A stretch of DNA of 56,661 nt from Micrococcales bacterium (GTDB lineage: Bacteria; Actinomycetota; Actinomycetes; Actinomycetales; Microbacteriaceae), in the NCBI GenBank assembly GCA_024639965.1, contig JAHEGC010000004.1:22366-79026 (forward strand). Direction: 5' to 3'. Both the position numbers and the translations under genes were made by a program. Each line of letters begins with the position of its first letter. Within the stretch, counting starts at the first letter, position 1. Shown here piece after piece: positions 9,818-49,302 of this stretch. Below the pieces are notes generated by a model, which made no database searches, was not told the DNA's origin, and was given only the letters and a program-made list of their open reading frames with translations.

Positions 9818-11404
9818 CTACGGTCGGTTATTCCTCCGCGAGCGCAGGGGCGCGAGAAGATCCCGAGCGGTTGGGTCGCGCAACAGTACGAGACCGACGA
9901 GGAAGGTGATACCCATGATCGCCGCGATGAATCCGGCCCAGAGAACCGCCCCACCGATCGAATCGGTGGAGGGGAGTGCGTCGCGAACCATGACTCCGAC
10001 CCCGAGCGAGGGGAGTGCGGCGATGACGAATCGAGCAATCCCGACCGTGAGACGTCGGAAGCCGAGAGTGCCGAGTTGCCGGCGCAACATGACGGCGAGC
10101 AACGCCGCTTGAACGAAGGTCGAGAGTGACATCCACAACGCGATCCCGGTGGCGACCGCTGAGACGGGCCCGGCCCCGACGGCGAGAATTCCGATGCCGA
10201 ACACCGCGGTCTGGGCGAGTTGAACAAGGAACGGTGTGCGCGTGTCTTCGAGGGCGTAAAAAATGCGCTGCAGGATGAAGGCGATTCCGAACGGCACAAG
10301 GCCGAGTGCATAGAGCGCGACGACGTCCGCCATGCCCGCCCCGGACTGGTCGGCGAACACGATGGCGACGTACGGCGACGCGAGACAGAGGATTGCACTG
10401 GAGATGACCATGAACAGGGAAACGCGAGAAATCGACTCCCGAACGTCCGCCGCGAGCCGATCCCACCGTTTGTCCCGTACATCGGTGGCCATCCGCGTGA
10501 AGTAGGCGGTTCCCAACGACACGGTGATGACCGAGTGGGGGAGCATGAAGACGAGCCAGCCAAATCGGAGGACCGCAAGACCCGGTTCGTTGAAGGCGGT
10601 TGCGACGGACGCAATGTTGCTCTGCAGGATTCCCGCCAGTTGGGTGACGAGAATCATTCCGAACGTCCACGCCGCGAGTTTCGTTGTGGTGCCCAAGCCC
10701 ACCCCACGGAATCGGAAATCGGGACGGAAGGAGATTCCCGCTCGTTTGAGGAAGGCGAAGAGTGCGACCGCCTGAACGAGAACGCCGAGCGTGGCGCTTC
10801 CCGCCAGGATGGCAATCGAGCTGGGTGACCAGGACGATGAGGACGTCACGTCTCCGGTGAATACCGCTGTGAACCAAATCATTCCCGCGATCGCGACGAT
10901 GTTGTTGAGTGCCGGAGCCCAGGTGAACGGACCGAACAGCCCACGGGCGTTGAGGACCTCACCGACGAGGGAGTAAACAGCGTAGAAGAAGATTTGCGGC
11001 AGACACCACCATGCGAATGCGGTTGCCAGCCCGAGGGCACCGTCGTCGAAACCCTGACGCGCGTAGAGGTTGACGAGAAACGGAGCGAGTCCGGTCGCGA
11101 GGATCGTGACCACAAAAACCAGGGACATTCCGAGAGTCAGCAGACGGTTCACGTACGCTTCTCCGCCGTCTTCGTGCAAACCCGCCTTGACGATTTGTGG
11201 AACGAGAACGGCGCTGAGCACACCACCCGCAACGATGACATAAACGTTGTTGGGGAGTTGATTGGCCAGGGCGAAGGCGTCGGCGCCGGCACCGACGACA
11301 CCGACGGTCCGCGCGAGCACCACTGCGCTGATGAATCCGAGAATGCGCGACACGATCGTGCCCGACGCGAGCAGGAGGCTCGAGCGCCCGATCCGATTAG
11401 GCAC
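9818..11404 (-). CDS. murJ: Lipid II flippase MurJ (MviN family)
   Basis: A polytopic protein of 528 residues with about 14 hydrophobic segments and the MurJ N terminus (GRSSLLLASGTIVSRILGF). It moves the peptidoglycan precursor lipid II across the membrane. The charged loops typical of MurJ are present (for example RMATDVRDKRWDRL). It starts at GTG 11404 and overlaps the end of the DUF6049-type gene by 8 nt, so the two are co-translated. Actinobacterial MurJ may carry a pseudokinase extension, as in Mycobacterium, but this one lacks it. Confidence 0.93.
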   Translation of the reverse strand: MPNRIGRSSLLLASGTIVSRILGFISAVVLARTVGVVGAGADAFALANQLPNNVYVIVAGGVLSAVLVPQIVKAGLHEDGGEAYVNRLLTLGMSLVFVVTILATGLAPFLVNLYARQGFDDGALGLATAFAWWCLPQIFFYAVYSLVGEVLNARGLFGPFTWAPALNNIVAIAGMIWFTAVFTGDVTSSSSWSPSSIAILAGSATLGVLVQAVALFAFLKRAGISFRPDFRFRGVGLGTTTKLAAWTFGMILVTQLAGILQSNIASVATAFNEPGLAVLRFGWLVFMLPHSVITVSLGTAYFTRMATDVRDKRWDRLAADVRESISRVSLFMVISSAILCLASPYVAIVFADQSGAGMADVVALYALGLVPFGIAFILQRIFYALEDTRTPFLVQLAQTAVFGIGILAVGAGPVSAVATGIALWMSLSTFVQAALLAVMLRRQLGTLGFRRLTVGIARFVIAALPSLGVGVMVRDALPSTDSIGGAVLWAGFIAAIMGITFLVGLVLLRDPTARDLLAPLRSRRNNRP

Positions 11405-12824
11405 GTCGGCGCCGATCGCGAATCTGGCGGACGATTCCCACGCTGAGGATGATGCTCACAAATCCCACGAAGACGGCGAGTGTCACGCCCTCCCACTGTG
11501 CTTGGATTTCCACGGGGAGAACGATCGGGCCGCTGATGTCAAACCCCTCGGCGGTGGTCAGGGTGACGACGAGTGCGGTGTGGCCGTTCGCGACCGTTTC
11601 CACGGGGATCGACACCTGTTCGTTCGCCCCCGCCGCAATCGTCACCTCCAGGTCAGGGGAGTCGACGCGCATCGCACCAGTCTGAGATCGCGCCGCGAGC
11701 GTGACGGTGATGTCGGTGGTTGACAGGTTGCTGACGGTGACCGGGATGTCCGCCTGGTTAGACAGAATCGTGTACTCGGCACCCTGCTGAACGGCCACAA
11801 CATCGGAATACGTTCGCGCGTTGCGGAGGTAGTTGCGGACCAGCGCGACGAATTGGTCATCGTCAGCGAGCCCCGCGAGAACGCAAATCCGCTCAAGCCG
11901 CGGAAGTGCGATGGCGGCGGGGTTAACACCAATGGCGGAAATTCTCCTGTCGAATCGGTGTTGAGTGAGCAGTGTCGCGACCACATCCGCATGGGGCTTT
12001 GAGATGACGGGGTTGCCGAGCGTCTCGGTCGTCGCGGGCTCGTATCGGGTGAGGGAGACACCCCGCGACGCGAGTTCGTCGAGAACGGCCGATGCTCGAG
12101 CGGGGTCGATGGCGCCAGGCGAACGCGGAAGAGATACCGCGCGAACGGTCCCGTCGCCAAGAATTCTGCCGACGACGTCGACCGCGCTGAGCGCCGCTCT
12201 CGGAGATACTCCGTCTGCGAGGAGCGCGCCTCCCGTCGCCGACAGCGCGTTGCGATTGCCGGGGAACGTGGCATCGTCGACGATGAGGGCAGTGAAGCCG
12301 AGCGTGTGAACGCGCGACACCGAGTTGCGATCGCCCACGCGACCCGTCGGCCAGCCCACGATGTCGGAGGCACCGACCCCCGACAATTCGCTCAATTGGA
12401 TCGCGGAAATTCGATTGTTCGTTGCGGTGGCCGCGAGCGCAAACGGGTCGGCGTTACCCCAGGGCAGGTCGAGGGGATTCGAGCGCTGCACGGCAGCCAG
12501 CCACGCCACGGCGCTCGCGGGAGCATCGTCGCCGAGGCGCTCGATGCTCGCGGTGATTCGGGAGTCGAGCGCGATCGTCGCGCCGTGTTCGAGTGCTGCC
12601 GCGGAGAGAACCGCCCAACCGCCCCCGGCGGCAGTGTTCGATTCGAGTTCGGCGGCGTCGAGGGAACCCGTTGACGTGGTCGCCGACACGATGGGAACCA
12701 CCACCGACATCGTGATGCGCGGTGCGGCCGGCGCGGGCGTGGCACTGCCGAAAACGGCGGCGACGAGCGCGAGCAGCCACGCGATTCGATACCGCCCGGC
12801 ACGAAGCACGAAGGCACCCGACAT
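11397..12824 (-). CDS. DUF6049-type secreted/membrane-anchored protein
   Basis: From ATG 12824 the protein has 475 residues. A signal peptide (about 1-33, ...GSATPAPAAPR) is followed by an extracytoplasmic part, an immunoglobulin-like stretch late in the protein (VTVSNLSTTDITVTL) and one C-terminal membrane span with a basic tail RQIRDRRRRA. This matches the DUF6049-type proteins that sit between murJ and the CCA enzyme in actinobacteria. Function is unknown; a role in cell-envelope work with MurJ is inferred from the overlap. The ORF-track N-terminal extension overlaps pcnB and is rejected. Its leaderless promoter shares a palindrome with pcnB. Confidence 0.8.
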   Translation of the reverse strand: MSGAFVLRAGRYRIAWLLALVAAVFGSATPAPAAPRITMSVVVPIVSATTSTGSLDAAELESNTAAGGGWAVLSAAALEHGATIALDSRITASIERLGDDAPASAVAWLAAVQRSNPLDLPWGNADPFALAATATNNRISAIQLSELSGVGASDIVGWPTGRVGDRNSVSRVHTLGFTALIVDDATFPGNRNALSATGGALLADGVSPRAALSAVDVVGRILGDGTVRAVSLPRSPGAIDPARASAVLDELASRGVSLTRYEPATTETLGNPVISKPHADVVATLLTQHRFDRRISAIGVNPAAIALPRLERICVLAGLADDDQFVALVRNYLRNARTYSDVVAVQQGAEYTILSNQADIPVTVSNLSTTDITVTLAARSQTGAMRVDSPDLEVTIAAGANEQVSIPVETVANGHTALVVTLTTAEGFDISGPIVLPVEIQAQWEGVTLAVFVGFVSIILSVGIVRQIRDRRRRA

Positions 12825-12831
12825 GACGGTA

Positions 12832-12841
12832 AGTCTAGACT
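12832..12841. promoter_or_regulatory. Shared bidirectional -10 palindrome AGTCTAGACT
   Basis: The 10-bp palindrome reads TAGACT on both strands. The start of the DUF6049-type gene is 7 nt from it on one side and pcnB 8 nt on the other. Both spacings fit leaderless transcription in actinobacteria. The palindrome and spacings are seen; promoter activity is inferred. Confidence 0.7.
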
Positions 12842-12849
12842 GACGGGGT

Positions 12850-47832: not shown

Positions 47833-48640
47833 CGTCAAGTCGCGATTCGATCACGGCGATCGAATCGGGGTTGCGATCGATGAGCACCGTGTTGCGGTCG
47901 AGGGCACGGGCGGCAGCACCCGTCGTGCCGCTCCCCGCGAACGGGTCGAGAACCCAATCCCCCGGTCGGCTCGACGCCGCGATGATGCGCCGCAGAATGC
48001 CGACCGGTTTCTGGGTGGCATACCCCGTCTTCTCGCTCCCGGTTGGGGAGACGATCGTGTGCCACCACACATCGGTCGGCAGTTTCCCCCGCTCGCGCTT
48101 CTCGGGGGTCACCAGACCCGGGGCCATGTAGGGCTCGCGATCGACCGTGTCCGAATCGAAAAAGTACGTCTTCGGGTTTTTCACATAGACGAGAATCGTG
48201 TCGTGTTTGGTCGGCCAACGTTTGGTCGACTTCGCCCCATAGTCGTAGGCCCAGATGATCTCGTTGAGGAAGTTCTCGCGCCCGAAGAGCGCGTCGAGGG
48301 CCACCTTCGCGTAATGGGCTTCGCGGTAGTCCAGGTGCAGATAAAGCGTGCCCGAGTCGGTGAGCAACCGGTGCGCCTCACGCAAACGGGGCTCGAGGAA
48401 CTCCCAATAATCCTCGAACGCGTCGTCGTAGCCGTAGAGCACGCCCTTGACGGTGTCGTAGTTCGCGCCGCCGAACCCCACGCGCGTTCCCGTCGAACTC
48501 TTCTGCGTCGACATCGTCTGTCGTTCCTGGCGGCGTCCCGTGTTGAACGGCGGGTCGAGGTACACGACCTGGAACGTGCCGTCGGCGAGCGAGCGCATCA
48601 CGTTGAGGTTGTCCCCCTCGATCAGGTGTGTTGCGTTCAT
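47786..48640 (-). CDS. Orphan DNA methyltransferase, beta class
   Basis: A 284-residue SAM-dependent DNA methylase. Motif IV DPPFNTG (29-35) precedes motif I FAGSGTTG (about 234-241), the permuted order of beta-class N6-adenine or N4-cytosine methylases. TGYATQKPV is the motif X-like segment. The recognition sequence is not predictable. No restriction endonuclease is beside it, so it is an orphan, possibly cell-cycle or gene-control related. A leaderless -10 TAATTT lies 6 nt before its ATG. Confidence 0.87.
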   Translation of the reverse strand: MNATHLIEGDNLNVMRSLADGTFQVVYLDPPFNTGRRQERQTMSTQKSSTGTRVGFGGANYDTVKGVLYGYDDAFEDYWEFLEPRLREAHRLLTDSGTLYLHLDYREAHYAKVALDALFGRENFLNEIIWAYDYGAKSTKRWPTKHDTILVYVKNPKTYFFDSDTVDREPYMAPGLVTPEKRERGKLPTDVWWHTIVSPTGSEKTGYATQKPVGILRRIIAASSRPGDWVLDPFAGSGTTGAAARALDRNTVLIDRNPDSIAVIESRLDVTASPTVPESLRSAR

Positions 48641-48645
48641 TCCCC

Positions 48646-48652
48646 TAAATTA
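48646..48652. promoter_or_regulatory. Shared -10 between MTase and SpoU methylase
   Basis: TAAATT (48646-48651, plus) lies 6 nt before the SpoU GTG; TAATTT (48647-48652, minus) lies 6 nt before the MTase ATG. The two hexamers overlap by 5 nt, so one 7-bp site serves both strands. Promoter activity is inferred. Confidence 0.55.
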
Positions 48653-48657
48653 ACAGA

Positions 48658-49302
48658 GTGGAACACGACGAGTCGCACGCGCCGAGCGCGGAACTGTCGA
48701 CTCACGGAGTTGGGCCGTGGCGAGGCGATTGGCCCGACGACCCGCGGTTCGACCCCGACCTGCTGCGCGACGGTGACACCCGCAACGTCATCGACCGCTA
48801 TCGGTATTGGCGCGTCGACGCGATAGTGACCGATCTCGATGAGCGCCGACACGGATTTCACGTCGCTATCGAGAACTGGCAGCACGACCTCAACATCGGG
48901 TCAATCGTGCGCACCGCCAACGCGTTCCTCGCCGACACCGTGCACATCGTCGGGCGGCGGCGTTGGAACAAGCGGGGGGCGATGGTGACCGACCGTTACC
49001 AACACGTGATGCACCACCCCACTATCGCCGAGTTTCTCGAATGGACGCGCGCCCACGACCTCCCCGTCATCGGGGTCGACAACGTCGACGGGTCGCGCTC
49101 GATCGACGAGACGGCACTTCCCGAACGCTGCGTTCTGTTGTTCGGCCAGGAGGGCCCCGGCCTATCTCCCGAGGCAATCGCCGCGAGCGACGTGGTTGTC
49201 GAAATCCCGCAATTTGGATCGACTCGATCGCTCAATGCTTCCGCCGCGGCGGCGATCGTCATGCACTCGTGGGTTCGGGAGCACGTGACCGCCAAACGAT
49301 AG
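48658..49302 (+). CDS. SpoU/TrmH-family RNA 2'-O-methyltransferase
   Basis: A 214-residue SPOUT enzyme. Motif 1 is NIGSIVRTANAF, motif 2 RCVLLFGQEGPGLS and motif 3 STRSLNASAAAAIVMHSW. An N-terminal extension of about 60 residues precedes it. tRNA or rRNA ribose methylation is expected, with unknown target. The promoter is shared with the divergent DNA methylase. Confidence 0.9.
   Translation: MEHDESHAPSAELSTHGVGPWRGDWPDDPRFDPDLLRDGDTRNVIDRYRYWRVDAIVTDLDERRHGFHVAIENWQHDLNIGSIVRTANAFLADTVHIVGRRRWNKRGAMVTDRYQHVMHHPTIAEFLEWTRAHDLPVIGVDNVDGSRSIDETALPERCVLLFGQEGPGLSPEAIAASDVVVEIPQFGSTRSLNASAAAAIVMHSWVREHVTAKR

What the first reader, a model, noticed from the sequence alone, without database searches (positions are those of the whole stretch)
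12832..12841. One palindrome serves as -10 for two divergent genes
AGTCTAGACT reads TAGACT on both strands and lies 7 nt and 8 nt from the starts of DUF6049-type and pcnB genes. A single symmetrical site would force the two transcripts to compete for one polymerase. This links envelope (murJ operon) and tRNA maturation expression.
Basis: partly seen in the sequence, partly recalled or inferred. Interest (0 to 1): 0.65.

Follow-up and report, generated by a model that had tools for sequence, protein, structure and literature searches.

The report
Two-way promoter shared by leaderless genes
A ten-letter DNA palindrome, kept unchanged across five genera of one bacterial family, most likely acts as the RNA-polymerase start signal for two genes at once, one on each side, so the gap between them is little more than a single two-way promoter; it is a clear new example of a known promoter type rather than a new mechanism.

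Summary
AGTCTAGACT (12832-12841) is the only copy in the genome. It carries TAGACT on both strands, 7 nt from the DUF6049 ATG and 8 nt from the "pcnB" ATG; that gene is an actinobacterial CCA-adding enzyme.

The site is under strong selection: identical in 41 distinct sequences from five Microbacteriaceae genera whose flanks have diverged (between-genus identity 1.00, against 0.35 for the spacers).

The pattern fits two overlapping -10 boxes (AnnnTAnnnT), not a regulator's operator. In 34 other genera the DUF6049-side box (AGTCTA/ATTCTA) stands alone, never followed by GACT. Two members of one palindrome genus lack the intact site; one keeps both boxes, split apart.

Leaderless promoters are common in this genome (265 of 1252 called genes). 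Five other divergent pairs have fused -10s, at the 18 or 23 bp spacings known for E. coli bidirectional promoters; two of three tested are conserved in the genus.

So the shared-promoter reading is well supported by comparison, though no transcript data exist. Forced competition and an envelope-tRNA link are not supported: tested E. coli bidirectional promoters show no basal competition.

The parts
12832..12841 (.). palindrome AGTCTAGACT: two overlapping -10 hexamers sharing the central TA (AnnnTAnnnT, the 23-bp class)
   Evidence: invariant in 41 distinct sequences of 5 genera
12836..12841 (+). -10 box TAGACT of cca ('pcnB')
   Evidence: kept as a separate TAGACT at cca in L328 and L331 of genus g59 when the site is split
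12832..12837 (-). -10 box TAGACT of the DUF6049-murJ operon
   Evidence: AGTCTA or ATTCTA kept alone on the DUF6049 side in 34 other genera
12842..12849 (+). 8-nt spacer from -10 to the cca ATG; no room for a Shine-Dalgarno leader
   Evidence: 8 or 9 nt in palindrome bearers
12825..12831 (-). 7-nt spacer from -10 to the DUF6049 ATG (leaderless spacing)
   Evidence: 6 or 7 nt in all fused relatives
11397..12824 (-). DUF6049 protein with signal-peptide-like N-terminus (P0002)
9818..11404 (-). murJ, overlapping the end of DUF6049 by 8 nt (operon)
   Evidence: NCBIfam score 234.7, just under its cut-off 235.55; Pfam 230.6, cut-off 27.4

Best explanation
A bidirectional housekeeping-sigma promoter made of two overlapping -10 boxes. 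RNA polymerase opens the same ten base pairs in either orientation: on the + strand it uses TAGACT and starts cca at or within a few nucleotides of its ATG; on the - strand it uses the mirror TAGACT and starts the DUF6049-murJ operon at its ATG. Both mRNAs are (nearly) leaderless, so no Shine-Dalgarno region is needed and the 25-nt gap holds little but the promoter. Shown here: sequence, spacing, conservation, and fused versus separate states in relatives. Inferred: the actual start sites, activity in both directions, mutually exclusive binding.
For: Genome-wide leaderless signal: TANNNT peaks 6 nt (188) and 7 nt (77) before start codons against 3-26 at other spacings. Invariance of all ten bases in 41 distinct sequences of five genera, spacers at 0.35 between-genus identity. 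A start codon lies 6-7 nt from the - strand box in every one of the 56 loci where cca's -10 has the A needed for fusion. Genus g38 has the non-palindromic fused form AGTCTATTCT, still two valid -10s. In 34 genera with separate promoters the DUF6049-side box is AGTCTA or ATTCTA followed by variable bases, never GACT; in genus g59 the same two boxes occur fused (L093-L099) or apart (L331), and L328 has TAGACT at cca without AGTC. A at the position needed for the opposite box is only 16% in ordinary leaderless promoters. The spacing is the 23-bp class of E. coli bidirectional promoters, and five further fused pairs exist in this genome, two of three tested being conserved in the genus.
Against: No transcript data. 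Spacing 8 (9 in other genera) on the cca side is outside the main 6-7 nt peak. Invariance of the inner triplets exceeds what a -10 needs (TAGACT is only 13 of the hexamers in the peak, TAGGCT 38), leaving room for an extra constraint. If starts lie exactly at both ATGs they are 26 bp apart, one beyond the 7-25 bp range used to define the class.
Confidence: 0.86

Rival explanations
1. The palindrome is the operator of a dimeric transcription factor controlling both genes; the -10 likeness is secondary.
For: It is a perfect inverted repeat and its inner letters do not vary in palindrome bearers; -10 boxes elsewhere tolerate inner changes, for example thiL.
Against: One copy per genome in the own genus. 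When the two promoters are apart the palindrome is not kept: only the DUF6049-side half remains, in 34 genera, and in g59 the halves separate with their genes. g38 is fused without a palindrome. No regulator gene was recognised among the neighbours in the ORF list (by eye).
Confidence: 0.07
2. Only one gene uses the site; the other starts elsewhere, and the symmetry is incidental.
For: The cca spacing of 8-9 nt is not in the main leaderless peak.
Against: A one-gene promoter does not explain conservation of the other half: ordinary leaderless promoters have no AGTC before TANNNT. The cca box TAGACT persists when separated in L328 and L331, and the DUF6049 box persists alone in 34 genera.
Confidence: 0.06
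3. Chance: two -10-like hexamers overlap by accident in a short gap and are conserved by common descent only.
For: Fused -10s share two required bases, so they arise cheaply; the excess at divergent over tandem genes in this genome is modest (13 of 138 against 3 of 142, with each divergent pair counted from both sides).
Against: Invariance across five genera with diverged flanks and at least two, six on the best tree, changes between fused and separate states.
Confidence: 0.01

Closest known systems
Prokaryotic bidirectional promoters (Warman, Grainger and co-workers; PMC12825309, PMC10268837)
   Same: Overlapping -10 elements on opposite strands between divergent genes; last-T distance 9 here gives the 23-bp class, one of the common E. 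coli spacings.
   Different: Both predicted starts coincide with start codons, so there is almost no 5' UTR; no -35 element is evident; start sites are not mapped here.
Leaderless actinobacterial genes with TANNNT about 12 bp upstream of the start codon (PMC3160421, PMC3898074)
   Same: TANNNT at leaderless spacing, no -35, no Shine-Dalgarno.
   Different: Here two such genes share one core back to back.
lysG/lysE overlapping divergent promoters of M. tuberculosis (PMC5648196)
   Same: Divergent actinobacterial genes with mapped overlapping promoters and an inverted repeat at the centre.
   Different: 108-bp gap, a LysR-type regulator bound to it, overlap of -10 and -35 elements rather than one shared core with two leaderless starts.

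Membership tests
Bidirectional promoter | -10 elements on opposite strands overlap reciprocally in a known configuration (18 or 23 bp class) | tested here: met
   AnnnTAnnnT, last-T distance 9 = 23-bp class
Bidirectional promoter | divergent start sites mapped 7-25 bp apart | not testable with these tools
   predicted 23-26 bp; no transcript data held
Bidirectional promoter | RNA made in both directions from the fragment | not testable with these tools
   needs in vitro or in vivo transcription
Leaderless gene | TANNNT at leaderless distance from the start codon | tested here: met
   DUF6049 gap 7 lies in the genome's 6-7 nt peak; cca gap 8 is just outside it
Leaderless gene | transcript start within 5 nt of the start codon | not testable with these tools
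   no 5'-end data; criterion from PMC3898074
Transcription-factor operator | palindrome kept when the promoters lie apart | tested here: not met
   only half of it kept in 34 genera; halves separate in g59
Transcription-factor operator | several copies in the genome, or a regulator gene beside it | tested here: not met
   one copy; no regulator recognised among neighbouring ORFs by eye

The most novel reading that the evidence does not exclude
In leaderless-rich Actinobacteria fused -10s are a repeatedly gained and lost compact promoter type whose only intergenic content is the promoter, and at cca/DUF6049-murJ the invariant palindrome is selected to hold the two outputs in a fixed ratio.
Probability: 0.25. 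Interest if true: 0.68.

Novelty: new member of a known kind. Interest (0 to 1): 0.5.

Why it matters
Bidirectional promoters have been defined mainly from start-site maps, chiefly in enterobacteria in the papers I could read; little is said there about how they evolve. This locus gives a natural experiment: sister lineages, even members of one genus, carry the same two -10 boxes fused or apart. It also suggests that in leaderless-rich genomes such promoters can be predicted from sequence alone, because the start codon marks the start site, and it makes the cost or benefit of fusion testable.

Tried and rejected
Generic sigma-70 scan: no promoter match; its TTGACA/TATAAT consensus does not suit this genome. 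Rfam: nothing at the junction. TF-operator reading: tested against relatives with separate promoters and largely rejected. Order-wide search for AGTCTAGACT + 8 nt + ATG: 2 of 297 genomes, the other (L211) before an unrelated ORF. In-genome enrichment of fused promoters: divergent versus tandem leaderless genes gives p about 0.01, but each pair is counted from both sides, so it is weaker in truth and not used as main evidence. phnA pair: fused state not seen in the one other genus member that has the gene. Papers joining bidirectional promoters with leaderless genes: nothing relevant in the held library; no held paper on start sites and leaderless genes names Microbacteriaceae; the 2021 founding paper, as I recall its DOI, is not held, so its coverage of Actinobacteria could not be checked.

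Full report
OBSERVATION. AGTCTAGACT lies at 12832-12841 and is unique in the 1.37-Mb genome. On the + strand TAGACT is followed by 8 nt and the ATG of P0001 at 12850; on the - strand TAGACT is followed by 7 nt and the ATG of P0002 at 12824. P0001 is the actinobacterial CCA tRNA nucleotidyltransferase (TIGR02692, 679.6 bits against a cut-off of 438.8), so 'pcnB' is better called cca. P0002 is DUF6049, overlapping murJ by 8 nt.

GENOME CONTEXT. I read 1.336 of 1.370 Mb of the genome in stretches and called 1252 genes with a simple codon model. TANNNT has a sharp peak 6 nt (188) and 7 nt (77) before candidate start codons, against 3-26 at other spacings; 265 genes have it. This matches the published leaderless signal of Actinobacteria (PMC3160421; PMC3898074). 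No -35 element emerges in the leaderless set. TAGACT is only one of many hexamers used (13 occurrences at 6-7 nt; TAGGCT 38). The DUF6049 spacing (7) is in the peak; the cca spacing (8) is just outside it, so a leader of 0-3 nt is likely there.

CONSERVATION. All 13 nearest relatives found by protein search carry the exact palindrome at this place. In the 400-genome family sample it is present in all 10 sampled genomes of the own genus g1, in 9 of 9 of g31, 9 of 9 of g74, 3 of 3 of g7 and 7 of 9 of g59; every such site examined in these genera lies just before cca. Among 41 distinct sequences all ten columns are invariant, while between-genus identity of the spacers averages 0.35. Of 84 genera sampled through the cca gene, six have fused -10s: these five with the palindrome, and g38 with AGTCTATTCT, which is not a palindrome but is still two overlapping -10s.

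THE SEPARATED STATE. In 34 other genera a DUF6049-side box AGTCTA or ATTCTA lies 6-7 nt from an outward-facing start codon. The four bases after it vary and are never GACT, and the cca start lies further off (29-113 nt from the box), in most with its own TANNNT 6-8 nt before it (the ORF behind that start codon was not checked in each case). Genus g59 holds both states. Seven members have the fused site followed by CGAC..(C/T)TATG-type spacers; L331 has AGTCTA about 70 nt upstream and TAGACTCGACGGCTATG at cca; L328 has CTCGGTAGACTCGACCGTTATG at cca without AGTC. The two halves thus behave as two separable -10 boxes, each belonging to its own gene. This is the strongest argument for dual use and against an operator. 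On a tree of 113 CCA enzymes the fused state needs six changes on the best tree, but well-supported branches force only two, and gain cannot be told from loss.

NOT ALONE. Among 156 divergent pairs in this genome, 31 have leaderless-type -10s on both sides. Six are fused, with last-T distances of 4 (two) and 9 (four), and none falls at 5-8 or 10-16. With the usual 7-bp distance to the start these are the 18-bp and 23-bp classes of E. coli (PMC12825309). They are also the two overlaps in which the hexamers share two required bases, so they are the cheapest to evolve, and their frequency alone is not proof of selection. Conservation was tested for three: the site between a DNA methyltransferase and a SpoU/TrmH-type methyltransferase (window 48640/48658) is kept in 9 of 10 genomes of the genus; the thiL pair keeps both -10s in all 11 readable genomes, including ones with changed inner letters; the phnA pair is not kept in the one other genome that has the gene. 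AGTCTAGACT also sits between unrelated divergent ORFs in other genera (L087, L088, L147, L148).

MECHANISM. Best reading: RNA polymerase with the housekeeping sigma factor binds the same core in either orientation, each event excluding the other. Shown: sequence, spacing, conservation, fused and separate states. Inferred: start sites, two-way activity, exclusion. A functional link between lipid II export and tRNA maturation is not shown; many genera show the two genes with separate -10s.

OPEN POINT. The inner letters GAC/GTC never vary in palindrome bearers, though -10s tolerate variation there (thiL). Possible reasons are tuning of strength in both directions, since each inner triplet is also the upstream context of the other box, or an unrecognised factor. 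This keeps a small probability for an operator.

VERDICT. Real, conserved, and very probably a bidirectional promoter of a known class with (near-)leaderless transcripts on both sides. A good natural experiment, not a new mechanism.

Noticed in passing
window 48638-48660: A second fused leaderless promoter, CATTCCCCTAAATTAACAGAGTG, between a DNA methyltransferase (-) and a SpoU/TrmH-type methyltransferase (+), start codons 18 bp apart (TAnnnTA, the 18-bp class); kept in 9 of 10 genus members.
   Followed up: partly
L093-L099, L140-L146, L248, L274, L298, L239, L131, L139, L057, L068: In genera g59, g7, g31 and g38 the leaderless start on the DUF6049 side opens an 11-14 codon ORF (such as MSAVSFGSAPLCR*, MPALGIATRRRG*); in those read by eye its stop overlaps a GTG that could start the next gene. 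In g1 and most of g74 the same MSA N-terminus is in frame with DUF6049 or another long ORF. Possible leaderless upstream ORF coupled to the main gene.
   Followed up: partly
L314-L324 (thiL junction): Fused promoter AGGCTACCGT between thiL and a divergent gene that looks like DUF3515, kept in all readable genus members; inner letters vary while the -10 letters stay.
   Followed up: yes
L087, L088, L147, L148: AGTCTAGACT also lies between start codons of unrelated divergent ORFs in other genera, 6-8 nt from each: recurrent use of the same site.
   Followed up: partly
L214, L215, L219, L228, L240, L245, L266, L268, L289, L295: Several genera have no TANNNT before cca but share a TGTGGCAAGCTTG-like stretch about 20 nt upstream of its ATG; perhaps another promoter type.
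   Followed up: no
G000 divergent pairs: No divergent leaderless pair has last-T distances of 10-16, while 17-34 is well filled: a possible exclusion zone between fused and separate promoters.
   Followed up: no
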